DNA of 23,436 nucleotides, from IMG/VR virus record IMGVR_UViG_3300031673_008658, positions 1 through 23,436 of that record, one strand, 5' to 3'. Shown piece by piece: positions 1,885-21,725 of the stretch. Below the pieces are notes generated by a model. The model was not told the origin of the DNA and did no database searches. It worked only from the letters and a program-made list of their open reading frames with translations. Made by a program: the position numbers and the translations under genes. The stretch's first letter is position 1, and the number at the start of each line of letters is the position of its first letter. This DNA is from a virus.

Positions 1885-2259
1885 ATGTCTTGCCCTATTT
1901 GTGGGGCAGTTTTAAAAACACCAATGTTAGAAAAAGGAAAGACCACAGTAGGACCAACTGGTTGTCCTAAATGCGGTCCTGATATTGTGCCTATCCCTAG
2001 CTACCAAAATGCTCCAAAACCAAAAGGCAAAGAAAAAACAGATGTAGTTGTAAGATTTGCTGAGAAAAAAAAGAAAAAGCTTCCTTTCGCACCCAAAATA
2101 CATGTTAGTGATGAGTTTGAAATGATGGAAGGTGGAATCCCAGGAGAAATACCTGGTGGAGAATTTAAAATGATTAGCGATCCTGATGCCGATAATAAAG
2201 ATGAAAAATATTTAAAACATATACGACTAACCGCTGATGATTTGGCGATTGATGGTTAA
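1885..2259 (+). CDS. Zinc-ribbon ORF, probably the 3' part of the upstream gene
   Basis: The 124 residues open with CPIC (residues 3-6) and, about 24 residues later, CPKC, a pattern typical of a small zinc ribbon. A Lys-rich linker and an acidic tail containing a GGIPGEIPGGE stretch follow. The first ATG (1885) has no ribosome binding site in front of it. The frame is open upstream to 1783 and encodes a plausible linker (for example GTGLPEPRRPKGSGYF), so I favour translation as the continuation of the 341-1795 gene after a -1 shift. Its stop is 12 bases before the portal start, whose AAGGA binding site overlaps and follows the stop codon. Function is unknown; zinc binding is inferred from the Cys spacing alone. 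Confidence 0.55.
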   Translation: MSCPICGAVLKTPMLEKGKTTVGPTGCPKCGPDIVPIPSYQNAPKPKGKEKTDVVVRFAEKKKKKLPFAPKIHVSDEFEMMEGGIPGEIPGGEFKMISDPDADNKDEKYLKHIRLTADDLAIDG

Positions 2260-2271
2260 GGATTAAAAAAA

Positions 2272-5200
2272 ATGATTAAATTCACAAAAGGTGATGACAC
2301 CCCAGAACAGAGAAGAAGGCTTGTCCATGCATCAGGTGGAGAAATTGTTGAAGGTAAAAATAAACACAAATATGCAGTCAGCACACTTTCACAAACTCCT
2401 TTAACAAAAAACTCTCAATTTGCAGGTTCAGGTGCCAACGTAATTTGGACCCAACCTATGTTCTTCTCTCCATTACATACGCCCCAAAATTGGCAAATCG
2501 CGAGTAAAAGAAGAGAAATTTATCAATGGAGTTTTGTATCACCTTGTGGCATAACGCTTTATGATGGAAGTATAATGCCAATTTCGGTAATCTATGAAGA
2601 ATCCCAACCGATATCTACTTCTTCTCTTCTAATAGCTGACGACAGAATTCGTATTGATTTACCTAATATAAAAGTACAAGATGGTCACGGTAATTTAGTT
2701 AAGCCGGATAGAGCCAGTAAAAAATGGGCAAAGAAAAAAATAAATAAAATAAAAGTTTTAGGTGGTGCTGAATCCTTAGTTGTCACAAATGACCATAATT
2801 GTATGGTTATAAAAAAAGAAGATGTTGTATGCAAAAAGAACAAATGGAATGCCAAAAAGTGCATTTGTAATTATAATGCTCCAACCTGTAAAAGAGCAAA
2901 ATGTCAAGAATATATAAATAAAGAATATAATATTTCTACACTCAAAGCAAAAGACATAGAGAAAGGCGATTATCTTTTAGTCTCTTTTACGACAGAAGTT
3001 ATTAAGAGTATTATCACCTCTGAAGAAGAAGCTAGGTATGCAGGTCATTTAGCTTCTGATGGTTGGGTATGTAATGGTAATAACAAAACAAATTATTTTG
3101 TATCTGGGATTTGTTTTAGCAAAAAAGAAAAGGATTATGTTTTACCTACAATTAAAAAAGTTTTTTCTCAATATGATATAAATATAGAAGAGAAAAAATC
3201 CATAAATTCTAATTGTGTTACTTTAACCGAAAATAGTGATCAACTTTATAGTATCAGAAGTTCAAATCCTTCTCTATATGATTTTTCTGTAAAAACGGTT
3301 GTTGGTAAGGGAAAAAATAAACGTTTTACAGATCAGGTAACTCTTCTTAATCCCAAATTACAATTACATGTTTTAGGTGCATATATCCAATCTGATGGGA
3401 CATTTAATAAAGCCAATAAATGTGTAGAAATAACTACTTATTCTCCTAACCTTGCTAATCAGTTAGTATTAATGTGTTATCGTTGTGGAATATTAGCAAG
3501 AGTTAATAAACAACCTATAAGTTCAAGCAAAACAACTTTTTCTACAGATAATTCATATAGATATATTGTTAATATTTCTTCTTCTGAGTGCGAAAAAATT
3601 GCTCAATATGTGCCTGGGAAAGTTTTAGGGCAGGAAACAAAAAAAGCTAGACATAATAAAAGATTCTTTTGGAAGAATTTTGTTGTAACTCCTGTTATTT
3701 CTAATATATCAGAAGATTATGAAGGATATGTATATGACGTTAGAGTTCCAGGAACATATACAGTTACAGCTAATGGAATTGCATGCCATCAATCAAGATT
3801 CTACTACGAGAATGAGCCAAAAATCGCCGCAGGCATAGATTTTTATTGCTTTACACCACAAATGCAAGTATTAATGGAGAATGGAACCCAAAAAGCTATA
3901 TCTTCTATAAAAGAAGGTGACACAGTAAGATGCCATGATGGGTCTGTAGGAGTAGTGTCTAAAGTGCATACCAGAAATGCCAAGGAAGATATATATAATA
4001 TAAAAATACATGGTATTAAAAATATTCTTAGAGTTACAGCAGGACACGAAATTTTTGTTCAAAGAAATAATAAAAATATTTGGCAACAAATTTATCAATT
4101 AAAAAAAACAGATAGTCTTCTAACCCCTATCGATAATGTTAGAAACAGTTATATAGCAAGAAAAATTAAAAATATAAAAATAGAAAAATATGAAGGACCG
4201 GTTTTTGATCTAACCATTGAAGGTTCTCATACATATGTGGTTAATCGCGTGTCTGTGCATAACTCCGGCTTCCCGATGAATGGGTTCAAATTTGAATGTA
4301 AAGATAGAAAAATATTAAATTTTTATGACAGACTTGCAGAACGTATAAGACTTAATCATTGGCTTAAACTATTGTCATTTGAATATTACTTATTAGGAGA
4401 CGTTTTCCCGTTCGTGGAATATGAATGTTCACGCTGCGGTGGAGGAGGATACACAAAAAACAACGAAATATGTTATCATCCTGGCGGAACGATAAAAAGA
4501 ATTACAGTTATGAATCCTGATTGGATTACTGTACATGATAATCCAATGACAAAAGAGGCTGTATATTTCCTAGAACCTGATGATGAACTCAAAGGTATTA
4601 TTGCAAACAAAGAACCTAGAGAAGTTTATGATAGACTTCCTCCATTACTTATTCAGGCTGTAATGTCAGGACAACCTATCCAATTATCCAATAGATGCAT
4701 GAGTCATATGAAACATAATGCATCACCATATGGAACTTATGGCAATTCTATTGTACGTCGTATGTTTACGTATCTTGCGTATAAAACAAAACTAATGACT
4801 GCAAACTGGATTGTTGCAGAACGACTAATTTTGCCTATTAGAGTTGTAAAGGTTGGCGAAAAGGATAGACCAGCAAGCCAAGAAGATCTTTCTGATATCT
4901 CAAATCAATTAGCAGCAGTAGCTAATGATCCCAATTTAACACTAATCACTCACCACGCTTTCTGTCATGACAATAAGACAGAGGTTCTGACAGATGAGGG
5001 ATGGAAAAAACATGACGAATTGAATCATAATGAAAAAATTATGGTTTTTGATCCTAATACAGAAAATTGTAGATATGAAAAACCTATAAAATATCATGAA
5101 TTTGATTATGATGGCGAAATGGTTAAAATATCTGGAAATAAATATGATATGATGATTACTCCGAATCATCGCATGTTAAGATATAAAAGAAATAAAAAGC

Positions 5201-7668
5201 AATGGTATGTTGAAACTGCTGAAAAATTTGCATCAAGAAATGAGAGTGATAGATATATCAGATCATTCGCTGATTATAAAGCCAAAGATTTAGAGGAGAT
5301 CAATGTATGTGGATATAAGGTGCCTATCGATGATATGCTGGAGTTTTTAGGTTGGTATTTAAGCGAAGGACATTCAGAATATAAGCCGCTTAAAAGACGT
5401 TATATTGTTTCTGTATCTCAAAGTCCAACTCATAACCCCCAATATTGTGAAGAAATAGATAATTGTTTTAGCAAAATAGATATTCCTTTTCATAAATATG
5501 AATATGAAGGAAGAAGTACAACATGGAATATTTTGAAAAAGGATATAGCAAAACAGATAGGAGAATGGTTTGGGCATACTGCTTTTGACAAGAAAATTCC
5601 TTCTTTTATTAAAAACCTTCCACCGCATAGATTAAGAATTCTAATTAATTCCTATTGTAAAGGAGACGCTAGTTGGTATCACTGTGAATCTTCTGAATAT
5701 GTTCAGTGTGGCACAGTAAGCAATCAATTAGCTGATGATCTGTTGGAGATTATGTTCAAGGCTGGTTTCTCCCCAACAATTAGTCGATTTGGAAAAGAAA
5801 ATCAATACGTAGTAAATTGTAATTTATCTTCTGTTGGAAAAGGTAGGTTTAGTAGGGTGAAAGATAACCATATTAGCAAAAAACATTACAAAGGAAAAGT
5901 TTGGTGTTTTACAACTTCTACTGGTTTCTTTGTTACGAGAAGAGAAGGACGTATAGCAATACAAGGTAATTCATACGATTGGGTCGGGGCAACGGGCAAG
6001 ATTCATAGTATTACAAATGAACTAGAACAAATTGGTAAAGAATTACTTGATGGTTTTATGTTAAACCAAGCACTATTAAACGGGGAAATGGGGTGCCATG
6101 ACGAACAAACTTTAACTCTTACAGATAAAGGTTTTAAGAAATACGATCAAATTAGTGTAGAAGATAAAATCGCTTGTTATAATCCAACAACGAAAAAATT
6201 AGAATACCATCTTTATGCACAAAAACATGTATATGATTATGATGGGGATATGATACAATTTAAAGATAAAAATATAGATATTTGTGTAACACCTAACCAT
6301 AGGATGTATGTAAAAGAAAAAGAATCCGGTCATTTTGAATTTACAACTGCCGACAAAATAAAGAAAAAAGGTAAAATTATAAATTTCAATGAATTTTGGG
6401 ACAAAAAATATAAAAACAGATATCAACGCATAACATCTATTCAACATGTTCCGTATAAAGGTAAGGTATATTGTTTTTCAGTTCCTCATGGTTTATTTGT
6501 AACTAAACGTAAAGATAAAATCACGATACAAGGTAACAGTTACGGTGGTGCTCAGGTTGGTGTAGAAGTTATGATTCGTAGATTAGATAGTTGGAGATCT
6601 TCTTTATCAGAATGGGTAGAAAAGAACATCCTTCTTCCTGTTGCTATGATGCAAAACTTTATCGATATAGAAAAGTCAGAAGAAGCAGGAGAAACTTTAT
6701 ATTTATATCCAAGAATTAAATGGAATGACTTAAACTTACGAGATAAAACAAATTATAGACAGACCTTGATACAGCTTTATGACCATGGTATCGTTTCTAC
6801 TCAAACATTACTAGAAGAATTTGATCTTGATTATGATCAAGAAACTCGCAGAAGAAGAGAAGAACAAATAATTACATCAGCAGCCGGAATGGTTATGCCA
6901 GGTGGCGGTGGAATGCCAGGAGCAATGCCAGGTGGCGGAATGCCAATGGATATGGGCATGGGCGGCATGGGTGGTATGCCAGGTGGAGATATGGGTATGG
7001 GCGGCATGGGTGGTATGCCAGGTGGTGATATGAGCGGCGGTATGGGGGGAATGCCAGGTGGAGAGATGGGTGGTGGAATGGCAGCAGGAGCTACACCTGA
7101 TATCAAAGTAGGGAAAAGAGGTTCAGGTGGAAAAAGTTTAGAAGAACAAATGCCCAAAGCTCCTATGCCTAAAACGGTTAGGCTAACTTCACTAGAACAG
7201 AAAATGTTCAAATTATTGCAGGGGATGTCTAATAATGTTCCTTATAAGTTATTCGGACAATATGCTGTACAAATGCCTGGAGCACAACAGCCATTCTTAA
7301 TTGATTTTGCTTATCCATCTGTGGGTGTAGGAGTCGAAGCGGACGGTGATAAGTGGCATTCGGATTTAGAGAGTAGAGCGAAAGATTCAAAAAGAGATCA
7401 AAAACTTGCTAGTGTAGGATGGAGAATTCTCAGATTTAATGAAAAAGCATTTGATCGAGTAGCAGACATGCAGAAGATAATTTATGATAATTTGGCAGAA
7501 GCCACTAAAGAAAGGCAATCGAGAATGAAGACAGCTTCAACAAATGAAGAAATGCTAAAACAAACAACTCGATTATTAACTTTTGAAGGAATTAATGAAA
7601 AAGATTTGAAAGTTAAAAGAATACCACTTCCAAATGATTTGGGGGATGTTTTCTTAATTGGAAATTAA
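2272..7668 (+). CDS. Portal protein precursor with four inteins and a nuclease-like C-terminal domain
   Basis: The portal forms the dodecameric ring at the head vertex through which DNA is packaged. The 1798-residue reading frame alternates portal-like segments with four inteins (residues 92-507, 526-664, 898-1233, 1275-1422). Every junction has an intein Cys1 and a downstream Ser. Joining the exteins gives a smooth sequence, for example SFVSP-SRFYYENEP, GIDFY-SGFPMNGF, THHAF-SYDWVGA and NGEMG-SYGGAQ. Portal-like features are the stretch around KHNASPYGTYGNSIVRRM, the SYDWVGATGKIHSI segment and the following long helices. A CSRCGGGG segment lies between inteins 2 and 3. After about residue 1540 come a Gly/Met-rich repeat linker and a Vsr/DUF559-like domain. 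The start has TTAAGGATT about 8 bases upstream. The spliced product would be about 759 residues, within the range of large-phage portals. The portal call rests on sequence character and gene order, not on a search. Confidence 0.75.
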   Translation: MIKFTKGDDTPEQRRRLVHASGGEIVEGKNKHKYAVSTLSQTPLTKNSQFAGSGANVIWTQPMFFSPLHTPQNWQIASKRREIYQWSFVSPCGITLYDGSIMPISVIYEESQPISTSSLLIADDRIRIDLPNIKVQDGHGNLVKPDRASKKWAKKKINKIKVLGGAESLVVTNDHNCMVIKKEDVVCKKNKWNAKKCICNYNAPTCKRAKCQEYINKEYNISTLKAKDIEKGDYLLVSFTTEVIKSIITSEEEARYAGHLASDGWVCNGNNKTNYFVSGICFSKKEKDYVLPTIKKVFSQYDINIEEKKSINSNCVTLTENSDQLYSIRSSNPSLYDFSVKTVVGKGKNKRFTDQVTLLNPKLQLHVLGAYIQSDGTFNKANKCVEITTYSPNLANQLVLMCYRCGILARVNKQPISSSKTTFSTDNSYRYIVNISSSECEKIAQYVPGKVLGQETKKARHNKRFFWKNFVVTPVISNISEDYEGYVYDVRVPGTYTVTANGIACHQSRFYYENEPKIAAGIDFYCFTPQMQVLMENGTQKAISSIKEGDTVRCHDGSVGVVSKVHTRNAKEDIYNIKIHGIKNILRVTAGHEIFVQRNNKNIWQQIYQLKKTDSLLTPIDNVRNSYIARKIKNIKIEKYEGPVFDLTIEGSHTYVVNRVSVHNSGFPMNGFKFECKDRKILNFYDRLAERIRLNHWLKLLSFEYYLLGDVFPFVEYECSRCGGGGYTKNNEICYHPGGTIKRITVMNPDWITVHDNPMTKEAVYFLEPDDELKGIIANKEPREVYDRLPPLLIQAVMSGQPIQLSNRCMSHMKHNASPYGTYGNSIVRRMFTYLAYKTKLMTANWIVAERLILPIRVVKVGEKDRPASQEDLSDISNQLAAVANDPNLTLITHHAFCHDNKTEVLTDEGWKKHDELNHNEKIMVFDPNTENCRYEKPIKYHEFDYDGEMVKISGNKYDMMITPNHRMLRYKRNKKQWYVETAEKFASRNESDRYIRSFADYKAKDLEEINVCGYKVPIDDMLEFLGWYLSEGHSEYKPLKRRYIVSVSQSPTHNPQYCEEIDNCFSKIDIPFHKYEYEGRSTTWNILKKDIAKQIGEWFGHTAFDKKIPSFIKNLPPHRLRILINSYCKGDASWYHCESSEYVQCGTVSNQLADDLLEIMFKAGFSPTISRFGKENQYVVNCNLSSVGKGRFSRVKDNHISKKHYKGKVWCFTTSTGFFVTRREGRIAIQGNSYDWVGATGKIHSITNELEQIGKELLDGFMLNQALLNGEMGCHDEQTLTLTDKGFKKYDQISVEDKIACYNPTTKKLEYHLYAQKHVYDYDGDMIQFKDKNIDICVTPNHRMYVKEKESGHFEFTTADKIKKKGKIINFNEFWDKKYKNRYQRITSIQHVPYKGKVYCFSVPHGLFVTKRKDKITIQGNSYGGAQVGVEVMIRRLDSWRSSLSEWVEKNILLPVAMMQNFIDIEKSEEAGETLYLYPRIKWNDLNLRDKTNYRQTLIQLYDHGIVSTQTLLEEFDLDYDQETRRRREEQIITSAAGMVMPGGGGMPGAMPGGGMPMDMGMGGMGGMPGGDMGMGGMGGMPGGDMSGGMGGMPGGEMGGGMAAGATPDIKVGKRGSGGKSLEEQMPKAPMPKTVRLTSLEQKMFKLLQGMSNNVPYKLFGQYAVQMPGAQQPFLIDFAYPSVGVGVEADGDKWHSDLESRAKDSKRDQKLASVGWRILRFNEKAFDRVADMQKIIYDNLAEATKERQSRMKTASTNEEMLKQTTRLLTFEGINEKDLKVKRIPLPNDLGDVFLIGN
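2545..3792 (+). mobile_element. Intein 1 in portal (416 aa), LAGLIDADG endonuclease, ends in Gln
   Basis: It starts at Cys92 (CGITLYDGSIMPIS), has a block B Thr-x-x-His (T172, H175), and ends with a YDVRVPGTYTVTANGIACHQ block F/G before Ser508. Two LAGLIDADG motifs are visible: YAGHLASDG (about 256-264) and LGAYIQSDG (about 368-376), with Asp263 and Asp375 as the acidic residues. The last residue is Gln instead of the usual Asn, with the penultimate His (506) kept. A Cys-rich insert (Cys187, 197, 199, 206, 211) lies within the splicing domain after block B and may bind metal. The element should excise itself from the portal precursor and may cut an intein-less allele. Confidence 0.93.
3847..4263 (+). 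mobile_element. Intein 2 in portal (139 aa mini-intein)
   Basis: It starts at Cys526 (CFTPQMQVLMENG), has block B T589-x-x-H592 (VTAGHEIF), block F around GPVFDLTIEGSHTYVV and a canonical VHN end before Ser665. At 139 residues it contains only the splicing (Hint) fold, with no endonuclease. Only 18 extein residues separate it from intein 1. All expected splicing residues are present, so it should be active. Confidence 0.93.
4963..5970 (+). mobile_element. Intein 3 in portal (336 aa), LAGLIDADG endonuclease, Gly-Asn end
   Basis: It starts at Cys898 (CHDNKTEVLTDEGW), has block B TPNH (T963, H966) and ends IAIQGN before Ser1234. The endonuclease motifs are FLGWYLSEG (about 1025-1033, Glu1032) and LINSYCKGD (about 1124-1132, Asp1132). 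The penultimate residue, normally His, is Gly. Natural inteins lacking this His are known and can still splice. The splicing blocks closely resemble those of intein 4 downstream, so the two are paralogues or came from related invasions. Confidence 0.93.
6094..6537 (+). mobile_element. Intein 4 in portal (148 aa mini-intein), paralogue of intein 3
   Basis: It starts at Cys1275 (CHDEQTLTLTDKGF), has block B TPNH (T1340, H1343) and ends ITIQGN before Ser1423. The N-terminal and C-terminal blocks align directly with intein 3 (shared CHD, LTD, YDGxM, TPNHRM, KGKV.CF, FVT.R and IQGN), but the endonuclease is absent. Only 41 extein residues separate it from intein 3. I infer descent from the same family with endonuclease loss. 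Confidence 0.93.
6892..7080 (+). repeat. Gly/Met-rich tandem repeat linker in the portal
   Basis: Imperfect tandem units of about 39 bases encode a 13-residue repeat of the form MGMGGMGGMPGGD, flanked by looser MPGGG units (about residues 1541-1603). Two adjacent units are nearly identical at DNA level, and a third is diverged. The segment probably forms a flexible tether between the portal body and the C-terminal domain. Such repeats are prone to expansion and contraction and to assembly error. Confidence 0.85.
7186..7506 (+). other. Vsr/DUF559-like nuclease-type domain at the portal C-terminus
   Basis: Residues about 1639-1745 match the core pattern of Vsr and DUF559 proteins of the PD-(D/E)xK fold. 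FLIDFAY supplies an Asp (D1678). GVEADGDKWH follows (E1689, D1691, H1696). A KRDQKL element (R1708, D1709) and a GWRILRF strand complete the pattern. All the acidic positions expected from these families are present, so it is not obviously dead. Whether it cuts DNA, binds DNA or plays a structural role cannot be told from sequence. Confidence 0.7.
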
Positions 7669-8213: not shown

Positions 8214-11200
8214 ATGGCTATGATTAAAAAAGCTCTTTATTCTGTCATATCTATTGAAGCATTAAATGAACCCTATAAATGGAAAGAATTTAATTTTAAT
8301 CAAGTAAAATTCGCATCTATAGCGAAAGATGATGTGATTAATATAGGTGGTTTTGATTTAAAATCAGCTATAAGTGAAAATCCAGATCATCTTTTTGTTA
8401 AAATATTTGCAATTAAAAAAGATGAAATTAATGATAATGGTGATGCTTTTTCGGAAGAAGAACTTAAAAAAGGTGCTCATACATTTATCGGCGTTCCTAT
8501 TTTTACGAATCATCAAAACGATGATGTTGAAAAAGCAAGAGGCAAATGTGTACATGCATGGTATGACCAGAATGCTGGTGGAATTTATATTATTTCTATG
8601 ATAGATAAAGTAGCATATCCGCAGCTTGCTAGAGGAATAAAACAGGGATATATTTCTGGTACTAGTATGGGGACATCAGTAGAATATTCCTGTTGTTCTA
8701 TTTGCCATAATAAAGCTCATACAGCAGAAGAATATTGTTCTTGTGTAAAGGAAAGAAAAAATAGAAAATTTAGTGGTAAAGTAAAATGTACTTATCATAA
8801 TAGCCAATCAAAACCAGATGATGATTGCCCTATTTGCGGCAAGAAAAAAGGTGAATCTAAGGAAATAGAATATAAAGAAGCTCAGGTTTTTGAACATAAC
8901 TTCGGTCTTAAGTTCATCGAAGATAGTTTTGTAGTAAACCCTGCATGTCATGACTGTTTAGTACAAGAAATTTTTAATATAGACGAACTAGATAAGAAAG
9001 TAGCAAACCTAAAAAAACAAACTGACAAACTTCTCAAAGCCGCTTCATGCCAAACTGGTAAATGCGATTTAGAAAAGCATGCAGGAAAACAAGAAATTGA
9101 AGATTTAAAAAATGCGATGAATACGATTGAGCGTGTTGCGAAAAGCATGATGTCTCAAAAAGATCATGTTTCTATGGAATATGTTAGCGACCTGGTTGAA
9201 GTTATGGCAAATGTACAATCTGTTACGGATGAGCTTGTAGAAATGGGATACATGCAATTGGCTTCTCCTGTTATCGGGGAAGAATCAGTTGAAATGCCTA
9301 AAACGAGTACAGAAACATCCTTAGAAGCACCGCCACAAATGGAAACACAGCCACAAACTGGACAGTTTGAAACCCCAACTGGGAATGTAGTTGAAAACTT
9401 AGGTGGCATAGGAAGTATAACCAAACCTAAATTTTCAGCAAAATTAAAAGAAAAAAAGAAGGATTTTATACGTTTATCATCTAATTTAATAGACAGGTTG
9501 CAATCTCTAAGACAATTTCTCAATGAGACTGTAACTATTGCTAATTCAGAAGTCAATGATAAGGAGTATTCAGAAATGGATAATATGAAAACTGGACAAA
9601 ATCAGGTAGATGCTCAAAAGACTGCCGAACATGATTTAAATGTCATTACGGAAAAGCAATTGCCTGATGCCGAGTTTACTGGTAAAAGACAAGGGACTGC
9701 TCCCAATGTCATTACCGAAAAACAACTTAATGATCCAAGAGATGTTAATGTAACAACTTCTAAATCCCCACAAGAACGTTTGGGATCATATGATGTTATT
9801 ACTGAGAAACAACTCAGTAGCATCAAAGAAGGTTATGTTACTCGATGGGATACCTTTCCTGCTGTTATTACAGAAAAACAATGGGAAGAGACAAACCGTA
9901 TGATTGGATCTGAATTAAGTAGAGATCAATCCAATATTATCACAGAAAAACAATTAATTGATTTTCTTGGTCATCACCGTTATGTTCCTGCTAATGTTAT
10001 TACAGAAAAACAACTGAGTGACGATAGTAGGACAACTACTGGTGATCTTTCTCGTTGGGCATATACATATGATGCTTCAAGGCTTCTTAAGGCTGCTAGT
10101 GAAGCGGTTTCAGATGCCATCGCGTTTTATGGTAAAACCCCTCAAGAACTTAAGAGAACATCTTCTGTTCTAACAGAGAATGTTAGAAACGCTGACAAAG
10201 CAGCATATCTTGTACTAATAAATGCATTGCCTCATAAGGCTGCTGCTAGAAACGATGATAAGGTAAGATACAATTACTTATCAAAACTGGCTGATACAAA
10301 TGTTCCTACTCCTTCAACAACTGACGTGCTTATTGCCAGTATGAGTGATAAGTTAGAAGATCTTAGTGCTGATGATCTTATTCAGACAGTACAATATGTA
10401 GTAAACAATGAAAAAGCTTTGAATATTGCATCAGAATTAGCTAAAATAAAATTACAATCTGGTCCATCAATTGGTCAAACTGTTGATAAGTTTGCTGCAC
10501 TTGACAAGGCCGTTAATGAAATGTCTAAAGAAGCAGACGGTCTTTATCAGATCAATATTGCTGCTAAAGATATTGGAATGGAACCAGTAAAAAATGGTAA
10601 GTTCCTTAAAGCGGCCCATAAATGTGCTGAATCTTTAATTGGCTTAGATATCAAAACCGCTTTGATGAAGCTTGATGTTTCCGAAGACAAAGAGAATATT
10701 ACAGCAACACTTAAGGATGTTGATAAATTAAATGGCGAAGAAAAGAAAGCTTGGAGTGGGATTCTTGATCTTATAAGAAAAGATGATAAAGCTCCTCTCG
10801 ATTTAGACGATGAATCTCCTCTTGGTTTAGGTGGTGATGAAGAATGTGTAGAGTGTGAAGAAGACGGATTGCCATCTTTGAAAGAATTGCTTAGAGAATA
10901 CGGTGATGATGAAGTATTAGATGGAGAGGGAGGAGAAGAAGAATTGGACGAAAATGGTAATCCTGTTGATGTTGTTGATAATACCAAAGAAGAAGATATG
11001 AAATATATGGATACTGCTGCACCTGGAATGGCAAACATGTTCTCGACTATGGCTTCCCGTAAAGGAAAGAGAGAAGATTTGGTTAAGACAGCACAAGATG
11101 CCATGTTTGGTGGTGGCCCAGCCGGTCAAGCTGGTGCTGCCCCTGGAATTGGTCAACCAGCCGGTGCCGTTCCTCAAGCAGGTGGAGCAGCCGGTGCTCC

Positions 11201-14200
11201 TCTCGAAAGCTTTGAACAATCTGATATGGGTGAAGAATTTGGAGACGAAGGTGCAAGTGATCTACAACCGTCCCCTCCAGGTACTAAGTGTCCTGTATGT
11301 TCATCTGATGATGTAACGGTGAGTGATGGCAAGGGTGTTTGTGGCAATTGTGGCTCAAAGGTAAACTATAAGGTTGTTTTGGAAGTTGTAGAATGGGCCG
11401 GTTTACTAGAAGATTCTCAAGACGCAAAAGAAGAGGAAGAAAAAGACGAATTTGGTGGTGAAGGTTTTGAAATGCCAACCGAAGAAGCTGCTCCAATGCC
11501 AGGTGCCGGTCTTGCCGGTGCTGGTGGTGCTCCTACTGCACCAGCTATGCCAGCAGCAGCATCTACAAAGAATAATACCATGGTAAAAGAAGCTGGAGTG
11601 AGAGTCAAAAAATTTGCTACAGTAGCACAAATTACACCTATTATTGCTAACAAAATGAAAAAAGACAATATTAAACTAGGTTCGGTAAGTCCATTAACCG
11701 GATCAGTAAATACGATAGACCTTGGCGATGGCAAACATCTATGTCTCGATACCGGACATGCATATCATCTAAGATTTGCATTCAACAAAAACAAGCCTAA
11801 AGAAGTTTATGCTGAATGGTCCTGGGATCCAAATGTAGATGCCGAATGTCCTTCTTGCACAAGACGTAAACAAGATTTTGTAAACGCTCTTGGTAAGATG
11901 AATATATCGGAAGAAGAATTCGACGGAATGTCTCTCAAGACAAAATCCGAAACAATAATTTCCATGAAGAGTGCCGGTCTTCTTAAGAACACAAAAGTTG
12001 CTTCCGCAGAAGACGATGTTGTTGCACAAATGGTTAAGAAAGCAGAAGGAAGACTCGGAAACCGATTCCCAATGGAAACTTGTCTAGAGAAGTTAGCTCG
12101 TCGTTATGGCGAAGATGCACTTGCTCTTAGCGGTCCATGTGAGGGGAAGCCATTAGCCAACTGTATCTGTGAAACATTGAAAAAAGCTGGTGTTTACTCT
12201 GACAACACACTGTTCAAGGTTGCTGACATTTGGAGTGAAAAAGAAGCTGGTATTGAATGTATCGAAGACCATGTAAGAATGGGATTTGATCTTAAGGAAT
12301 CCGCTGTTGCTTGTGAAGGCATTAAAACCAAATATGCCCAAAACTCTGATATATTAGCAGAAAAACTAGCTCAACTAGCTATGGAAGAAGATGTAGCCGA
12401 ACCTGGATTGGGTGGTGGAGTCATTGAAGAAGAAACAGAAGAAATAGATCCATTTGCAGATGAAGAAGTTAGTGTTGATGAACTTGGTGATAGTGAAGTT
12501 GATGAAGGAAGGGGTGGTGGAGAGAATACAGTAACAATTAATATTCCAGCCAATGTACTGGAACAACTAGATAGAGCTATTGATGAAGCAACTGGTGAAA
12601 ATGTAGAAGATGAACTTCATCATCAAGAACCTGTTCCTAATATGGATGTTGATGTTGAAGTTCCAGCAGATGCTGCTGAAGCAGTCGATGAGGCTGCTGA
12701 TACCGCATTAGATCAAACAATGGATGTTGAACCAAATATTGAAGAAGAAGCGGCTCAAGAAGAAAGTTTTGGGGGTGATGAACCTGTTGTAGAGGAAGAG
12801 GTTGGAGTTGAAGGCGATCTTCCTGTTGATGAAACAGTTGTAGAAGAAACCGAAGATTGCGGAATGGCCCCAATGGATGCCGGATCAGTAGAAGTTGAAA
12901 TAGAAGATGATGGATTTGGTGGAAACGGTGAAGTTGATGAAGTTGGAGAAGAAAGTAGAGTGCAAAAGTTAGAAAGAAGAGTAGAAGAATTAACAAGAAA
13001 AGTAGAAGGTAAAGAAAAAACAGAAAATAAAGAACCTGGTGTTAGAGATGGAACTGGTCCAAGAGGAGGTAGTGAAGAATGCCCATTTAATAAAAACGTA
13101 GAAAATAAAGAAGGAGAAAATGAAGATAAATCAAATAATGATGAAGACAAAGAAGTTGTTCCAGAAGAACAAGGCGAATTTAAAGAAGGCGAAGATATGG
13201 AGACAAGTGCAATGTCTGAACAAGAATTCGAAAAAGAAGCCACTGCAATGAGAAGAGGACACATTAGTTCTGTCGGCAAAATGGGATTAGATCTCAGCAA
13301 GGTTGCCGAAGTTCTCAAGAAGGCTGGCGTAATTAAGTTAAGAAATGCACAAGACTCTGTACCTTTTACATATACAAATAATAGTGTTATCGGCGATGAA
13401 GATAAATTCAAAGCTGATGACCCTTCCGCCCCAAGTAAGGGTGATGCATCGAAGATGGGTCAAGAGGAGCCACCTTCAGCAAATAAACCAGACATCCCTG
13501 TTGCTGATGCAAGAATGGGTGGAGAAAAGGGCGAAAGTGATTTGAAACCAGAATTAGACGATAGTGCCACTGGTGGTATAGATGGAGCCGGAAATTCAAA
13601 GGCTGCTTCTACAAGAGATATGATGAATGGTCTAGCAGATCGAATCATCGAAGCTCAAACTCAAATCCAGAGAAAACAAGATCAGGATTTAGAGGAAGTG
13701 AAACCATACGGTGGAAATAGTTGGATTGGAAATGAAAAGGAAAGTATTGGAGAAATACCAAAAGCCAATATTAGACCAAAACAAGTTCCAATAACCAATA
13801 ATGCGTTTATCGGTGACGAAAAAGCCTCTATAGGTGATAAACCATCCGATAACGACACCCCTAACATTCCTACTAAGGATGACAGGATTGGTGGAGAAAA
13901 AGATAACGACAAGATTAAACCAGAACATGATAACGAAATGACTGGATTAGTAAACTCCGGTACTGTTCTAGCGGAGTCCAAGACTAATATCAAAGAAGCA
14001 TCTAGAGTCGCTGGCAAAATGCTTCAAGCTGGAAGAATCCAGCCAGAAGATCTTGCAAGCAAAATTGCAGAGCTACAAAGATATCAGCCCGAACAACTTA
14101 AAGATTTCGAAGATGCAATCTTTTCGAACAACAAAGGACTCAATAATGTACCAGACGGGATAGAGCAACCCGTAATCATTCATGAAGCAAGTAACCAACG

Positions 14201-14315
14201 AAATGCACAAAATGAGTTGGCCCACAAACTTCAGAGTTTATTCTCTTTGAATAAGCAAAATGTACTTGCTCAACAGGATACTGTCAACGAGTTAAGACGA
14301 TTAACTCGTGGCTAA
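8214..14315 (+). CDS. Prohead protease fused to a very long acidic scaffold-like protein
   Basis: Residues about 45-160 resemble the HK97-type prohead protease (peptidase U35): GDAFSEEELKKG, then PIFTNH with catalytic-type His100, then GYISGTSMG with the probable nucleophile Ser151. A Cys/His cluster follows (CSICHNKAH, YCSC, CPIC, ACHDC; about 161-248), then helical regions. Six VITEKQL repeats span residues 477-601. Beyond these are further helices, an Ala/Gly/Pro-rich stretch, a zinc ribbon (CPVC at 1026-1029 and CGNC), a Cys-containing helical region, a strongly acidic segment (about residues 1385-1660) with a short coiled coil, and a C-terminal repeat block. At 2033 residues it is far longer than usual separate protease (about 200) and scaffold (200-400) proteins. 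I infer a self-processed protease-scaffold precursor that supports head assembly and is cleaved during maturation. The start is the first ATG (8214); ATG 8220 is equally possible. Confidence 0.75.
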   Translation: MAMIKKALYSVISIEALNEPYKWKEFNFNQVKFASIAKDDVINIGGFDLKSAISENPDHLFVKIFAIKKDEINDNGDAFSEEELKKGAHTFIGVPIFTNHQNDDVEKARGKCVHAWYDQNAGGIYIISMIDKVAYPQLARGIKQGYISGTSMGTSVEYSCCSICHNKAHTAEEYCSCVKERKNRKFSGKVKCTYHNSQSKPDDDCPICGKKKGESKEIEYKEAQVFEHNFGLKFIEDSFVVNPACHDCLVQEIFNIDELDKKVANLKKQTDKLLKAASCQTGKCDLEKHAGKQEIEDLKNAMNTIERVAKSMMSQKDHVSMEYVSDLVEVMANVQSVTDELVEMGYMQLASPVIGEESVEMPKTSTETSLEAPPQMETQPQTGQFETPTGNVVENLGGIGSITKPKFSAKLKEKKKDFIRLSSNLIDRLQSLRQFLNETVTIANSEVNDKEYSEMDNMKTGQNQVDAQKTAEHDLNVITEKQLPDAEFTGKRQGTAPNVITEKQLNDPRDVNVTTSKSPQERLGSYDVITEKQLSSIKEGYVTRWDTFPAVITEKQWEETNRMIGSELSRDQSNIITEKQLIDFLGHHRYVPANVITEKQLSDDSRTTTGDLSRWAYTYDASRLLKAASEAVSDAIAFYGKTPQELKRTSSVLTENVRNADKAAYLVLINALPHKAAARNDDKVRYNYLSKLADTNVPTPSTTDVLIASMSDKLEDLSADDLIQTVQYVVNNEKALNIASELAKIKLQSGPSIGQTVDKFAALDKAVNEMSKEADGLYQINIAAKDIGMEPVKNGKFLKAAHKCAESLIGLDIKTALMKLDVSEDKENITATLKDVDKLNGEEKKAWSGILDLIRKDDKAPLDLDDESPLGLGGDEECVECEEDGLPSLKELLREYGDDEVLDGEGGEEELDENGNPVDVVDNTKEEDMKYMDTAAPGMANMFSTMASRKGKREDLVKTAQDAMFGGGPAGQAGAAPGIGQPAGAVPQAGGAAGAPLESFEQSDMGEEFGDEGASDLQPSPPGTKCPVCSSDDVTVSDGKGVCGNCGSKVNYKVVLEVVEWAGLLEDSQDAKEEEEKDEFGGEGFEMPTEEAAPMPGAGLAGAGGAPTAPAMPAAASTKNNTMVKEAGVRVKKFATVAQITPIIANKMKKDNIKLGSVSPLTGSVNTIDLGDGKHLCLDTGHAYHLRFAFNKNKPKEVYAEWSWDPNVDAECPSCTRRKQDFVNALGKMNISEEEFDGMSLKTKSETIISMKSAGLLKNTKVASAEDDVVAQMVKKAEGRLGNRFPMETCLEKLARRYGEDALALSGPCEGKPLANCICETLKKAGVYSDNTLFKVADIWSEKEAGIECIEDHVRMGFDLKESAVACEGIKTKYAQNSDILAEKLAQLAMEEDVAEPGLGGGVIEEETEEIDPFADEEVSVDELGDSEVDEGRGGGENTVTINIPANVLEQLDRAIDEATGENVEDELHHQEPVPNMDVDVEVPADAAEAVDEAADTALDQTMDVEPNIEEEAAQEESFGGDEPVVEEEVGVEGDLPVDETVVEETEDCGMAPMDAGSVEVEIEDDGFGGNGEVDEVGEESRVQKLERRVEELTRKVEGKEKTENKEPGVRDGTGPRGGSEECPFNKNVENKEGENEDKSNNDEDKEVVPEEQGEFKEGEDMETSAMSEQEFEKEATAMRRGHISSVGKMGLDLSKVAEVLKKAGVIKLRNAQDSVPFTYTNNSVIGDEDKFKADDPSAPSKGDASKMGQEEPPSANKPDIPVADARMGGEKGESDLKPELDDSATGGIDGAGNSKAASTRDMMNGLADRIIEAQTQIQRKQDQDLEEVKPYGGNSWIGNEKESIGEIPKANIRPKQVPITNNAFIGDEKASIGDKPSDNDTPNIPTKDDRIGGEKDNDKIKPEHDNEMTGLVNSGTVLAESKTNIKEASRVAGKMLQAGRIQPEDLASKIAELQRYQPEQLKDFEDAIFSNNKGLNNVPDGIEQPVIIHEASNQRNAQNELAHKLQSLFSLNKQNVLAQQDTVNELRRLTRG
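9642..10016 (+). repeat. Six VITEKQL repeats in the scaffold region
   Basis: The motif (V/I)ITEKQ(L/W) begins at residues 477, 499, 528, 551, 575 and 595, spaced 20-29 residues with unrelated sequence between. The codons differ between copies (for example ACG, ACC, ACT and ACA for Thr), so conservation is at protein level. The I-T-E core fits the (L/I)-x-E cleavage pattern known for the T4 prohead protease, which makes these candidate maturation cleavage sites. A binding motif for a capsid or core protein is the alternative. Confidence 0.85.
13380..13946 (+). repeat. Two-copy IGDE...GGEK repeat in the C-terminal scaffold region
   Basis: Copy one (13380-13575) and copy two (13800-13946) share NxxIGDE at the start, a Pro-rich middle with PDIP or PNIP, then R(M/I)GGEK, KPE and a D..(A/M)TG end. 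A partial copy (NSWIGNEKESIGEIP) lies at about 13719-13757. The copies are diverged at DNA level, so this is an old internal duplication kept for its protein sequence. Confidence 0.7.
14287..14309 (+). other. 9-bp hairpin at the end of the scaffold gene
   Basis: ACGAGTTAA (14287-14295) pairs perfectly with TTAACTCGT (14301-14309) across a 5-base loop. It lies in the last codons of the protease-scaffold gene, and no T tract follows, so it is not a standard terminator. It may protect or mark the 3' end of the upstream message. Confidence 0.6.
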
Positions 14316-14346: not shown

Positions 14347-14916
14347 ATGGCATTGATTGAAATTTATCACGTTGTTGCAGATATGTACGACGTTGATCCT
14401 GACAGCACCACAACTTATGAAGAAGGTGAATTCGCAAGACTGACTACTTCCGGTACAAATGTTTACGCTACTGTAGATAACGCCTCAGGTAACGCTATCG
14501 GTGTATTGGCTGACACAAAAAGTACTTCCGCCATTGGTGCAGGTACTCCATACGCAGCTAATCTAATCGTCAACGCAAATGGTGCTACTCGTTCGACTCA
14601 GAACAGAGTTAGTGACTATTTTGATGAAACCGTAGGTTCCGGAAAAGTAACTATCTATAACAGTGGCGGAAAGTTTGCTACCGATATGTACGAAACTCTT
14701 GATGGAGCAGCACCTGTAAGTTATACGGTTGGTGCTGTGTTAGAAACAAGTGCTAATGGAAGGCTTTGCCCAACTACGTTTTCTACACATAGTGGTCAAA
14801 CAGTTGCTCGTTGTGTAGACAATCCAAAAGCATGGACATCCGGTGTTCCAGGTACGGATACTACTGATAACAGTATTAGTCTTGGAACATATATTACGTT
14901 CTTACTACTTATCTAA
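14347..14916 (+). CDS. Probable capsid decoration (cement) protein
   Basis: The 189-residue product is rich in Thr, Ser, Gly, Ala and Val with alternating hydrophobic residues, as expected for a beta-rich surface protein, and has few Lys. Its leader, GGAGATTAAATAATGGC, is the same as that of the major capsid gene downstream, which suggests matched high expression. A gene between the protease/scaffold and the major capsid protein is the usual place for a decoration or stabilisation protein of lambda gpD type, but no specific family motif is recognised. It has two Cys residues (in RLCP and VARCVD) and a hydrophobic end (TYITFLLLI). A minor capsid or head-fibre protein is an alternative. Confidence 0.6.
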   Translation: MALIEIYHVVADMYDVDPDSTTTYEEGEFARLTTSGTNVYATVDNASGNAIGVLADTKSTSAIGAGTPYAANLIVNANGATRSTQNRVSDYFDETVGSGKVTIYNSGGKFATDMYETLDGAAPVSYTVGAVLETSANGRLCPTTFSTHSGQTVARCVDNPKAWTSGVPGTDTTDNSISLGTYITFLLLI

Positions 14917-15005: not shown

Positions 15006-15878
15006 ATGGCTATCAATAAAAATGGCTTAACTGACAAAGAAAAAGAGATGATCATTGAAGCTGCTTTGAACACAGACGAGGGGCGTGTTGCACTAGCTCA
15101 AGCTATGGTCGAACCTATTCGTAGATCGTTAGAGTATCAAGCTGTAGGTCGTAAACTGCTTATGGTTGACGAACTGCCACAAGGTGCTCTTGCAAGATAC
15201 GAAAGGGACGTAGCCTCTGTTGCACACGTCGTTTCTCGTCGTGGTGCAGTCCCTGATCAAATCCAAGAAGGCGAAGAGATCTTAGTCCCTACCTTCGAAA
15301 TCGCTGCTCACCCAACAGTACGTCTAAGTGAAATTAAAGCACGAAGATTCTATATTGTTGATAGAGCACAAATTAAAGCAAAAGAAGCAATCCAAAAAGA
15401 AGAAGATACAAACATTTTCAACGCTTTGATTGCAGCCGCTGTAAACAACGGTAACCAAATCGTTTACAACATGGGCGATTTAACAGTTAACTCCCTCAAC
15501 ACAGCTTACCGCTATATTGAGGCACATGACCTTGTAACTACAAAGGTGGTTATGCATGCAAACCAATTTGCAGCAGTCAGAGTATTCGGTAAAGAGTTCT
15601 TCGATGAAGCAACTCAGAGAGAAATCATCACAACCGGTCTTTACGGCCACCTATGGACTGCCGATATTCACGTATCCTCACGTATGAATACCGAAGTAGT
15701 CCTGGTTGTAGCTTCCCCTGATACAGTTGGTGCATTCCCTGTAAGACAAGATATTACAGTGCTGCCTGCTGACGATCCCAAGAAGCTCCGACTCGGTTGG
15801 GTGATATACGAGGAAATAGGGATTTGTATTGTCAATGATTATGCAGTATCCCTCGTAGAAGTTAACAGTAGCTCATAA
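15006..15878 (+). CDS. Major capsid protein, HK97 fold
   Basis: This is the shell subunit of the head. The 290 residues begin with a helical segment, followed by RRSLEYQAVGRKLL, an E-loop-like charged region with RRGAVPDQIQEGEEILVP, then HPTVRLSEIKARRF and the long spine-like helix AKEAIQKEEDTNIFNALIAA. A P-domain and A-domain core follows (ATQREIITTGLYGHLW, TVGAFPVRQDITVLPADD, YEEIGICIVNDYAVSLVEV). These are characteristic of short HK97-fold capsid proteins without a long N-terminal scaffolding arm, consistent with a separate scaffold upstream. AAAGGAGATTAAATA before the ATG is the best ribosome binding site of the plus-strand block. Codons end in C more often than in neighbouring genes, as expected for high expression. 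A strong terminator follows. Confidence 0.88.
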   Translation: MAINKNGLTDKEKEMIIEAALNTDEGRVALAQAMVEPIRRSLEYQAVGRKLLMVDELPQGALARYERDVASVAHVVSRRGAVPDQIQEGEEILVPTFEIAAHPTVRLSEIKARRFYIVDRAQIKAKEAIQKEEDTNIFNALIAAAVNNGNQIVYNMGDLTVNSLNTAYRYIEAHDLVTTKVVMHANQFAAVRVFGKEFFDEATQREIITTGLYGHLWTADIHVSSRMNTEVVLVVASPDTVGAFPVRQDITVLPADDPKKLRLGWVIYEEIGICIVNDYAVSLVEVNSSS

Positions 15879-15965: not shown

Positions 15966-15994
15966 TTGTGTTTTCTATTAGTAAGTGCTATAAT
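15966..15994 (+). promoter_or_regulatory. Extended -10 promoter for the homing endonuclease gene
   Basis: TATAAT (15989-15994) is a perfect -10 box preceded by TGC, which makes an extended -10. TTGTGT (15966-15971) is a weak -35 at the ideal 17-base spacing. Transcription would start near 16001, right at the AAAAGGAGA ribosome binding site, and therefore downstream of the GTG at 15968. Confidence 0.6.
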
Positions 15995-17812
15995 GTATTA
16001 AAAGGAGACATAATCATCAATAATACGAAAATTTTAAACCAATCATTTTTTGAAAAATACTACATAGATATGCAAATGTCTTTTCCTGAAATATCAAAAA
16101 TGCTTTATAATAAAGGAACACCAATTGCAACAAGTACCCTTTACAAATATGCAAAAAAAATTGGTATTAGTCGTTCTATTTCTGAAGGCAAAAGGTTAAG
16201 TCAAAATATATACTTAGATTATAAACAAACATTTATTAATGAATCTATAATAGAATGTATAGACGGATTTCTTTTAGGGGATGGTCATATAGATTTAAGT
16301 TCAAGCAAACAAACGCTGGTAGCTCGTTTAACATGTGGATTGGCATATCAGGAATTCTGTGAATATTTAATGTCATTTTTTAGTAATTATAATTCTTCTT
16401 GCACACCCTATAAAGACAAAAAAATGTCTAGTGGAATACAGTGGCAAGGTAGAACATCTTTTCATCCAGATTTGTATATTCAGCACAAAAGATGGTATCC
16501 TCAAGACAAAAAGAAACAGCCACCCCAAGATGTAAGATTAACACCAACTTCTGTATTGTTATGGTATTTAGGTGATGGATCACAAGTCCAATCAGGAAAT
16601 TCCATTTCTGTTCGTCTTTCAACAGATGGATTTTCTCCAAAAAATAACGAGTTTTTAGTTAAGCAATTAAATGAATTAGGTATTTCGTGTCATCGCAATA
16701 ATGATAATAGGATTTATATAGAAGCAAAGGGTATTCCTGACTTTTTTAATTTTATAGGCAAAGAATCTCCAATTGAATGCTATTCGTATAAATTCGATTT
16801 ACCTGAATGGCGTTTTGCATCAAAAAGAATGAGAGAGGTCGCAGAAGAGTTAAAAATAGATTATAATAAATTATCCTACTGGGTAAAAACGAACAAAATA
16901 CCTTGTTTTCGTACAGATCCAAAGGGTAAACCCAGATTTTTAACAGAACACATTCAAGAAATAAAACAATTTATAGCATCACATGAAGACTGTTTACAAG
17001 ATATTATAAATGTTTTTTCGACTGAAACAATACAACATAAAATTAATGGTTTATATTTTCCTAAACATAAGTTCCTCATACAATTAGTAAAAAATATAGA
17101 ATCTTCAGAAAAAAATATTTCACATACAGACGCTTATAAAAAACAAAAAAACATATTAACTGAGTGCAGAACAAAAGGGATACGTTTATTTTTAATATTT
17201 GAAAATCAATGGAGAGAAAGAAAAGAGCAAATACTCAATTTTTTAACAACTATAATACAAAAGAATTCTGTTATTGCAGCAAGAAAGTGTTCTATAAATA
17301 ATGAAAATTGCAAAGTATTTGTCAATCAAAACCATATTCAAGGGTATGGTATTGGAACTATAAAATTCTTTAATTTAATATATAACAATGAAATCGTGGC
17401 TTCGATGACTGTTTCAAAGCATCACAGGCAAAACATAGAAGGCAATCCTCTTATTCTTAATCGTTTATGTTTTAAAAACGGTTATACGATTCAGGGAGGA
17501 GCAAGTAAATTGTTTAAATATTTAAAGAACTGGGCGATAGGAGAAGGATATGATAGGATTATATCATGGTCTGACAGTTGTTGGACAGAGGGTAAAATTT
17601 ATGAAATTTTAGATTTTGAATTGGTTAAAGAATATGACCCTGATTATTTTTATTGGGATAGCATAAATAATAAATATCTATCAAAACAATCACAGAAAAA
17701 AAGCAATACAGGTTGTCCAAAAGAAATTACAGAAAAAGAATGGGCCTTACAGAAAGGGTTATTCAGGATATGGAACTGCGGAAAGAAATTGTGGCAATAC
17801 GAAAAAGGATAA
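15968..17812 (+). CDS. Composite LAGLIDADG homing endonuclease
   Basis: Domains, counted from GTG 15968: a DNA-binding helix-turn-helix (about 30-68, FPEISKML and STLYKYAKKIGIS); two LAGLIDADG motifs (IDGFLLGDG at 98-106 and LLWYLGDG at 197-204); a second excisionase-like helix-turn-helix (about 286-336); then a region resembling Vsr-type endonucleases of phages (INGLYFPKHK, GIRLFLIFENQW) and an acetyltransferase-like C-terminal part (IAARKCSI, NQNHIQGY, GGASKLFKYL, ISWSDSCW). In related Vsr-type proteins the INGLYFP position reads more like ELNGLYWH, so that site looks degenerate here. GTG 15968 is only the first usual start codon in frame. The promoter and AAAAGGAGA (16000-16008) point to translation from ATA/ATC at 16010-16016. 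ATG 16070 has no binding site. It probably spreads by cutting DNA at or near the capsid gene. Confidence 0.85.
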   Translation: MFSISKCYNVLKGDIIINNTKILNQSFFEKYYIDMQMSFPEISKMLYNKGTPIATSTLYKYAKKIGISRSISEGKRLSQNIYLDYKQTFINESIIECIDGFLLGDGHIDLSSSKQTLVARLTCGLAYQEFCEYLMSFFSNYNSSCTPYKDKKMSSGIQWQGRTSFHPDLYIQHKRWYPQDKKKQPPQDVRLTPTSVLLWYLGDGSQVQSGNSISVRLSTDGFSPKNNEFLVKQLNELGISCHRNNDNRIYIEAKGIPDFFNFIGKESPIECYSYKFDLPEWRFASKRMREVAEELKIDYNKLSYWVKTNKIPCFRTDPKGKPRFLTEHIQEIKQFIASHEDCLQDIINVFSTETIQHKINGLYFPKHKFLIQLVKNIESSEKNISHTDAYKKQKNILTECRTKGIRLFLIFENQWRERKEQILNFLTTIIQKNSVIAARKCSINNENCKVFVNQNHIQGYGIGTIKFFNLIYNNEIVASMTVSKHHRQNIEGNPLILNRLCFKNGYTIQGGASKLFKYLKNWAIGEGYDRIISWSDSCWTEGKIYEILDFELVKEYDPDYFYWDSINNKYLSKQSQKKSNTGCPKEITEKEWALQKGLFRIWNCGKKLWQYEKG

Positions 17813-19729: not shown

Positions 19730-19937
19730 TATATTTTTCCTTTTTTAAAAATTGCATTAATTTGAATGTATGGGATATTAAACTTATTGAGCATAAAATT
19801 AACGCAATAATTGGTAGCAAAAAAGTAAACCAAGGATCTTGGTCTATATATCTCCAAGTGATAACAAATATATTGATAGAAATACAAATAGACATTAAAA
19901 TCATCATAAGCAAATTTTCTAACATTTTATTTTTCAC
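19716..19937 (-). CDS. Small membrane protein with two helices
   Basis: The 73 residues contain two hydrophobic segments, about residues 8-27 (MLENLLMMILMSICISINIF region) and about 36-54 (WFTFLLPIIALILCSISLI), joined by a short acidic loop and ending in a basic tail (KKEKYNEDA). The start is GTG, overlapping the TGA of the Thg1-like gene as GTGA, with AAGGAGA 7 bases upstream. ATG 19925 is an internal alternative. The overlaps on both sides show tight coupling. It is likely an inner-membrane protein; no family is recognised, and a holin-like role cannot be shown. Confidence 0.7.
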   Translation of the reverse strand: MKNKMLENLLMMILMSICISINIFVITWRYIDQDPWFTFLLPIIALILCSISLISHTFKLMQFLKKEKYNEDA

Positions 19938-20665: not shown

Positions 20666-20674
20666 ATTATTCCC

Positions 20675-20995
20675 CTATAATTTTGCGATATATGCGGTAT
20701 CTCTCAATCTAGTGAATTTCCAGTTTACATGTTCTGCGTTACTATGTTTCATAATTAAATTACACCAATCTTTATATCTTTTACATTCTATTCTTGCTGC
20801 CATTTTAGTATTAAGACATATGGTATTTTTGTGTAATAGATCTTTCTCCACAAAGTCTACACTTGTACGTCTTGAAGTACACCAATCATAACGGATAAGA
20901 ATACTATTTTCCTTGATATCGCGTACAAGAAAACATATTTCTGTTCCAGAGGTATCGCCTAAATAGTATTTAGATTTTCTTATGATATAGTACAA
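20675..20995 (-). CDS. Unknown 106-aa protein
   Basis: The start is TTG with GAGGAAAAATAG upstream, a good binding site at normal spacing. The protein is basic and beta-rich at the N-terminus (YYIIRKSKYYLGDTSGTEIC, ILIRYDWC) with a helical second half (MAARIECKRYKDWCNLIMKH). It has six Cys residues but no zinc-finger spacing. It lies between the Thg1-like gene and the Thg1 remnant, so it is flanked by imperfect direct repeats. No family is recognised. Confidence 0.6.
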   Translation of the reverse strand: MYYIIRKSKYYLGDTSGTEICFLVRDIKENSILIRYDWCTSRRTSVDFVEKDLLHKNTICLNTKMAARIECKRYKDWCNLIMKHSNAEHVNWKFTRLRDTAYIAKL

Positions 20996-21678: not shown

Positions 21679-21725
21679 GTTTTTTCTCCTTATATGTTTT
21701 TCTTCCTACAACCTATTATAGTTTG

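What the first reader, a model, noticed from the sequence alone, without database searches (positions are those of the whole stretch)
9642..10016. Six VITEKQL repeats as candidate prohead protease sites
The motif recurs every 20-29 residues with different codons and unrelated spacers, so it is selected at protein level. Ile-x-Glu matches the known (L/I)-x-E cleavage rule of the T4 prohead protease, and a protease domain lies in the same chain. Cleavage would release a set of about 20-residue peptides, like T4 internal peptides.
Basis: partly seen in the sequence, partly recalled or inferred. Interest (0 to 1): 0.6.

Follow-up and report, generated by a model that had tools for sequence, protein, structure and literature searches.

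The report
Six-motif array opening a phage scaffold
A repeated short motif in a huge phage head protein is real and ancient, but it looks more like a row of six docking helices at the front of a separately made scaffold protein than a row of cut sites for the protease it is fused to.

Summary
The six ITEKQ repeats are real, at the stated coordinates, and conserved as a six-copy array in relatives on 40 other viral contigs. They lie in a 2033-residue protein whose N-terminus has the fold of the T4 gp21 prohead protease (Z 10.0). The protease-site reading is weakened. Across 41 family members the Gln of I-T-E-K-Q-L is kept in 239 of 246 slots and the would-be P1 Glu in 200; one member (L061) has Gln in all six P1 positions beside an intact catalytic His and Ser. 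However, the 12 members nearest the window (itself included) keep Glu in 72 of 72, so cleavage there is not excluded. In an AlphaFold model all six motifs begin a short helix exactly at the Glu, as a helix N-cap motif would. New finding: just upstream of the array is a conserved in-frame ribosome-binding site and start codon (41 of 44 members; 5.3% of other in-frame Mets). In relative L011 protease and array protein are separate genes. Best reading: a protease gene with a nested scaffold gene, whose product opens with six binding helices. A second six-copy array, [M/I]-G-x-E, is a better candidate for Glu-directed cleavage. All functions are inferred.

The parts
8214..14315 (+). 2033-residue ORF: head protease domain, linker, motif array 1, helical and Zn-ribbon-like regions, motif array 2, C-terminal helices
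8355..8978 (+). protease domain (about residues 48-255), T4 gp21 / herpesvirus assemblin fold; His100 (8511-8513) and Ser151 of S-M-G (8664-8666)
   Evidence: AF2 pLDDT mostly 80-95 there; 5jbl_B Z 10.0, 128 aligned, 2.9 A; phrog_18299 head maturation protease E 2e-10; H100/S151 kept in 25 of 25 readable rows
9560..9566 (+). internal Shine-Dalgarno TAAGGAG, 9 nt before an in-frame ATG
9576..14315 (+). nested scaffold ORF started at internal Met455 (1579 residues)
   Evidence: Met455 column at least 90% conserved; SD of 5 or more nt in 41 of 44 members; separate gene in L011
9642..9662 (+). array 1 slot 1, VITEKQL
9708..9728 (+). array 1 slot 2, VITEKQL
9795..9815 (+). array 1 slot 3, VITEKQL
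9864..9884 (+). array 1 slot 4, VITEKQW
9936..9956 (+). array 1 slot 5, IITEKQL
9996..10016 (+). array 1 slot 6, VITEKQL
13389..13400 (+). array 2 slot 1, IGDE
13455..13466 (+). array 2 slot 2, MGQE
13515..13526 (+). array 2 slot 3, MGGE
13725..13736 (+). array 2 slot 4, IGNE
13809..13820 (+). array 2 slot 5, IGDE
13887..13898 (+). array 2 slot 6, IGGE
13965..14138 (+). C-terminal helices (residues 1918-1975)
   Evidence: AF2 pLDDT about 80-93 over most of it
14347..14916 (+). 189-residue protein between scaffold and capsid genes, possible decoration protein
   Evidence: same place as phage G gp26 'capsid decoration'; sequence match to gp26 only E 0.023
15006..15878 (+). major capsid protein, HK97 fold, 290 residues, short N-terminus
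   Evidence: phrog_2522 E 2e-65, NF042927 E 1e-54, phage G gp27 E 5e-98

Best explanation
The gene is a head protease with a scaffold gene nested in its 3' part, in the same frame. Ribosomes start at 8214 (protease plus scaffold) and also at the internal ATG 9576, which gives a protease-free scaffold of 1579 residues whose N-terminus carries the six motifs. Each motif (I-T-E-x-Q-L/W) is a helix-initiation motif: Ile is N', Thr the N-cap, Glu N1, Gln N3 (capping box), Leu/Trp N4 (hydrophobic staple). The array is thus a string of six short helices on flexible linkers, most likely a multivalent docking site for a head partner such as the major capsid protein, the portal or scaffold neighbours. 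After assembly the protease clears the scaffold, more plausibly at Glu sites such as the [M/I]-G-x-E array near the C-terminus. Shown by computation: array, conservation pattern, protease fold, internal start signal, split gene in L011, second array. Inferred: use of the internal start, scaffold role, binding partner, cleavage sites.
For: Gln 239/246 and hydrophobe 246/246 kept, Glu 200/246; Gln of slots 1, 4 and 5 invariant in A3. Helices start at 480, 502, 531, 554, 578 and 598, exactly the six motif Glu; only 2 of 8 helix starts between residues 450 and 620 lie elsewhere. Slots 3-6 spacing 22-23, 24, 20-21 residues in the 33 main-clade members while spacers drift. Internal SD of 5 or more nt in 41 of 44 (6 or more in 31 of 44) against 5.3% (1.4%) of 2162 other in-frame Met codons and 27% (18%) in a synonymous-codon null; GGAG falls in two main codon frames, 27 and 12 members. 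L011: protease ORF 1945-3417 and array ORF 5605-7554 are separate, the latter with its own TAAGGAG, ATG and an in-frame stop just upstream. Phage G, whose capsid protein and protease are related, has a free-standing 300-residue protease gene followed by separate genes in the same place.
Against: The array has low pLDDT (10-residue means 28-77, highest near slot 4), and the helices of slots 1 and 2 are three residues long, so they are weak predictions. The synonymous null is not small (27%). L011 (no internal start of this kind, because it is split), L048 (4-nt SD) and L037 (TTG, seen by eye) are exceptions. The divergent relative L082 has six degenerate copies in which Thr is mostly lost and Glu and Gln are each 5 of 6 by eye, which does not single out Gln. 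Among the 12 nearest members Glu is as conserved as Gln. No binding partner was identified, and a scaffold role rests on gene position and architecture only.
Confidence: 0.5

Rival explanations
1. Protease sites: the protease cuts after ITE in every repeat, clearing the scaffold and leaving about 20-residue peptides.
For: Protease in the same chain; window and its 11 nearest relatives keep Glu in 72 of 72 slots and [I/L]-x-E in 67 of 72; low pLDDT, so accessible; the T4 scaffold gp22 is cut into many pieces (PMC9026906, passages).
Against: 21 of 41 members have at least one slot without Glu, 17 of them among the 25 rows with readable intact His and Ser; L061 has none; Thr, Gln and the hydrophobe are kept although the L/I-x-E rule does not need them; an Asp at the T4 cleavage position inhibits processing (PMC9026906, passages), while here Glu gives way to Gln in 42 slots and Asp in 2.
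Confidence: 0.2
2. Dual-use peptides, like the T4 capsid targeting sequences: the motif first docks, then is cut after ITE in lineages that keep Glu.
For: T4 CTS peptides target by some residues and are processed at others (PMC9026906, passages); the Glu/Gln split by clade would be cutting and non-cutting versions.
Against: The conserved docking residues here lie after the would-be cut; no direct evidence.
Confidence: 0.2
3. Slots 3-6 are parts of a folded domain whose helix starts look alike, with no repeat function.
For: Fixed spacing of slots 3-6 and pLDDT up to 77 near slot 4.
Against: Near-identical motif in slots with drifting spacers (0.68 against 0.26), low pLDDT over slots 1-2, six copies kept in a second clade with different spacings.
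Confidence: 0.1

Closest known systems
T4 gp21 prohead protease (PDB 5jbl) and herpesvirus assemblins
   Same: Fold (Z 10.0; 9.2 for varicella-zoster protease), catalytic His and Ser conserved, gene upstream of the capsid gene
   Different: Fused in frame to a scaffold-like chain of about 1580 residues carrying two motif arrays
Nested protease/scaffold genes (phage lambda C/Nu3, herpesvirus UL26/UL26.5; both recalled). T4 gp21 also has a second start, Met45 (PMC9026906, passages)
   Same: Protease first, scaffold-like part second, internal in-frame start at the domain junction
   Different: Here the fold is gp21-like, the nested product is very long and opens with six repeats; in relative L011 the two are separate genes
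Bacillus phage G head module (gp14 portal, gp19, gp26 decoration, gp27 capsid)
   Same: Gene order; protease gp19 E 9e-48 against the family profile; capsid gp27 E 5e-98
   Different: Protease is a 300-residue free-standing protein; gp20 and gp21 in the scaffold position show no significant match to the array protein
Mycobacteriophage Alice gp90 and Phrappuccino gp53 (phrog_2774)
   Same: Homologous N-terminal protease domain (33-34% identity), long C-terminal extension, upstream of the capsid gene
   Different: No ITEKQ array in these two proteins

Membership tests
T4 gp21-type prohead protease | gp21/assemblin fold | tested here: met
   5jbl_B Z 10.0, 128 aligned, rmsd 2.9 A; Foldseek rank 1, probability 1.00, E 4e-3
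T4 gp21-type prohead protease | conserved catalytic His and Ser | tested here: met
   H100 and S151 in 25 of 25 readable rows of 41; the other 16 rows were given without that part because of inserts
T4 gp21-type prohead protease | sequence match to head maturation protease families | tested here: met
   phrog_18299 E 2e-10
T4 gp21-type prohead protease | cuts after Glu in a short motif (L/I-x-E in T4, A-x-E in SPN3US) | not testable with these tools
   rules from PMC9026906 and PMC10052503 (passages); no activity data for this protein
VITEKQL as prohead protease site | P1 Glu and P3 Ile/Leu kept across the family | tested here: not met
   149 of 246 slots, 12 of 41 members in all six; but 67 of 72 slots of the 12 nearest members
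Nested protease/scaffold gene (lambda C/Nu3 type) | in-frame internal ribosome-binding site and start at the protease/scaffold junction | tested here: met
Nested protease/scaffold gene (lambda C/Nu3 type) | internal product is made and acts as scaffold | not testable with these tools
   L011 shows the array part as its own gene, which supports but does not prove it
T4-like internal peptides | cleaved peptides kept in the virion | not testable with these tools
   needs virion mass spectrometry

The most novel reading that the evidence does not exclude
A hexavalent capsomer ligand: the constant number six, with fixed spacing and slot-specific residues, means one scaffold chain grips six capsid subunits, for instance around one hexamer, through six helix-initiation peptides; a second six-copy array at the other end of the chain is where the protease lets go. 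Scaffold-to-capsid stoichiometry would be written in the sequence.
Probability: 0.12. Interest if true: 0.75.

Novelty: new variant of a known kind. Interest (0 to 1): 0.5.

Why it matters
Scaffolds are among the least conserved and worst annotated head proteins. Here a sequence mark (a six-motif array behind a conserved internal start) points to the scaffold of a group of uncultured phages, suggests a gp21-type protease with a nested scaffold gene, and names concrete peptides for binding and cleavage tests. It also shows that an I-x-E array beside a protease is not enough to call cleavage sites.

Tried and rejected
A search for paired ITEKQ codons in GTDB genomes gave 2 stretches; L030 and L031 read as non-coding repeats. 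The array region has no significant match among 50,697 phage records (3 matches at E 4-6), no PHROG, and profile A3 matched no PDB sequence at E up to 1. Cleavage site in the capsid protein: the IIE is not conserved. The model of the C-terminal 370 residues gave no PDB match with E under 1. Rfam: no match at gathering scores in L011 or the window, so an intron explanation for the L011 split was not supported, though a degenerate intron is not excluded. Cleavage after the Gln was considered and dropped (no known head protease of this type does so, recalled). A first slot count scored candidates partly by Gln and so leaned towards it; it is replaced by alignment columns.

Rows dropped: of the 54 loci, 40 went into A3 with the window. 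Left out: L041, L043, L044, L052, L055, L074, L079 (short ORFs cut off by the end of the contig, no motif found), L036, L039, L047, L068 (near-duplicates of L035, L038, L046, L059), L082 (no regex hit; read later, six degenerate copies), L084 and L085 (no matching ORF found). For 16 of the 40 only the part after an in-frame insert was aligned. L011, L013, L015 and L016 were used in some counts but not in A3. A4 used 39 rows.

Full report
Observation. The ORF 8214-14315 encodes 2033 residues. Six ITEKQ motifs lie at 9642-10016, four exactly VITEKQL, all with different DNA, starting 22, 29, 23, 24 and 20 residues apart. Shuffling the protein 500 times never gave ITEKQ once.

Family. A protein search (4 loci) and a protease-alignment search (54 loci) in IMG/VR found relatives. 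A search for two ITEKQ codon runs 42-72 bases apart, independent of homology, gave 18 and 11 stretches; all 19 loci behind them hold an ORF with at least two ITEKQ motifs, and the ORFs I read or aligned are the same protein family. In GTDB genomes the one scan gave 2 stretches, both read as non-coding repeats. Alignment A3 holds 41 members, the relatives 28-58% identical to the window. Gln plus hydrophobe is found in all six aligned slots in 34 of 41 members and in five slots in the other 7. The most divergent relative, L082, also shows six degenerate copies by eye. The array is therefore old, and copy number six is kept. Each slot has its own identity to a degree: slot 4 of different main-clade members is 64% identical over 18 residues, against 25-32% to other slots; slots 1, 3 and 5 are 39-41% against 21-33%; slots 2 and 6 are only slightly above background.

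Which residues are kept. Mean pairwise identity per motif position is I 0.55, T 0.77, E 0.72, K 0.32, Q 0.95, L 0.76. Glu is present in 200 of 246 slots (42 Gln, 2 Asp, 1 Ser, 1 Gly), Gln in 239 of 246, and a hydrophobe in all 246. Weighted for relatedness, Glu and Gln are 80% and 97%. In slot 5 Glu falls to about half while Gln stays at 100%. L061 has Gln in all six P1 positions with intact catalytic residues. Against this, the 12 members at 50% identity or more (window included) have Glu in 72 of 72 and Gln in 71 of 72 slots, so the test has power only outside the window's own clade, and L082 keeps Glu and Gln equally.

Structure. The AlphaFold model of residues 1-720 (mean pLDDT 64.8) has a confident domain at about 45-255. 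Its best match is T4 gp21, Z 10.0, followed by herpesvirus proteases, up to Z 9.2. The array has low confidence, but helices start at exactly the six motif Glu residues (6 of the 8 helix starts between 450 and 620). That is the geometry of a helix N-cap: hydrophobic staple plus capping box (recalled; a literature search only listed papers using both terms). Glu and Gln are both acceptable at N1, which would explain their exchange, while N3 Gln and N4 Leu/Trp are kept (inference). A peptide bond in the first turn of a helix is a poor protease site (inference).

Internal start. The array begins about 20 residues after a conserved Met (Met455; column at least 90% conserved). Upstream lies TAAGGAG, 9 nt before the ATG. 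Among 44 members, 41 have an SD match of 5 nt or more before a Met in that zone, 1 has 4 nt and 2 have no Met there; of those two, L037 has AAGGAG before a TTG and L011 is split. Controls: 114 of 2162 other in-frame Met codons (5.3%) reach 5 nt; synonymous recoding reaches it in 27%. The GGAG falls mainly in two codon frames (27 and 12 members), so bases as well as residues seem to be kept. In L011 the protease ORF ends at 3417 and the array protein is a separate ORF at 5605 with its own TAAGGAG, ATG and an in-frame stop just upstream; between them lie a homing-endonuclease-like ORF (Pfam HNH_repeat, E 6e-7) and two small ORFs. Phage G has a free-standing protease and further genes in the same region. 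The capsid protein is short (290 residues) and shows no long N-terminal propeptide that could serve as a built-in scaffold (inference), which leaves the nested product as the scaffold candidate.

Second array. Near the C-terminus six [M/I]-G-x-E motifs (residues 1726, 1748, 1768, 1838, 1866, 1892) recur in relatives; Glu is kept in 196 of 221 aligned slots, Gly in 174 and a Met/Ile/Leu in 189. In the last 420 residues of 40 members, M-G-x is followed by Glu in 106 of 128 cases, against 31 of 252 elsewhere. One clade (L034, L037, L038, L040, L046, L048) has mostly lost it (0-2 regex matches each). The region is predicted unstructured. G-x-E resembles the S/A/G-x-E rule of phiKZ (recalled) and A-x-E of SPN3US (PMC10052503, passages). 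L061, which lacks Glu in array 1, keeps 4 here. This makes array 2 the better cleavage candidate, but it is only a candidate.

Verdict. The cleavage reading is possible in the window's own clade but is not what the family conserves. The best-supported reading is a gp21-type protease gene with a nested scaffold whose N-terminus is a six-fold docking array. In print: searches for ITEKQL (0 papers) and for protease/scaffold internal starts (0, 1 and 1 papers, seen as search listings only) found nothing on this family; the library holds only open-licence papers.

Noticed in passing
window 2272-7668: The portal gene carries several inteins (Pfam Intein_splicing in 3 stretches, LAGLIDADG) and a C-terminal restriction-endonuclease-like domain (MTES_1575/DUF559).
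   Followed up: no
relatives L056, L058-L060, L062-L065, L072, L073, L075-L078, L080, L083, L013: 17 of 45 aligned members carry a long in-frame insert (intein-like, about 240-550 residues) in or near the protease active-site region; in 9 of them the printed sequence shows it beginning right after the catalytic S-M-G. Splicing would then gate protease activity.
   Followed up: partly
L011:1945-7554: Protease and array protein are separate genes, split by a homing-endonuclease-like ORF.
   Followed up: partly
window 15968-17812: Free-standing LAGLIDADG homing endonuclease directly after the capsid gene (Pfam E 5e-21); its ITEKEW is probably a chance look-alike of the motif.
   Followed up: partly
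window 18653-22571, minus strand: IMP dehydrogenase/GMP reductase, Thg1 (tRNA-His guanylyltransferase) and D12-class adenine methyltransferase genes; Thg1 and IMPDH are unusual cargo for a phage (recalled).
   Followed up: no
window 11280-11360: Zn-ribbon-like motif inside the scaffold region (residues 1023-1049), below Pfam's cut-off; similar Cys pairs are seen in relatives such as L005 and L007.
   Followed up: no
L009 codon 1114 of gp90 and L010 codon 421 of gp53: Both mycobacteriophage relatives have an ATG with a 5-nt SD match at what looks like the same place in their extensions, a possible internal start there too.
   Followed up: no
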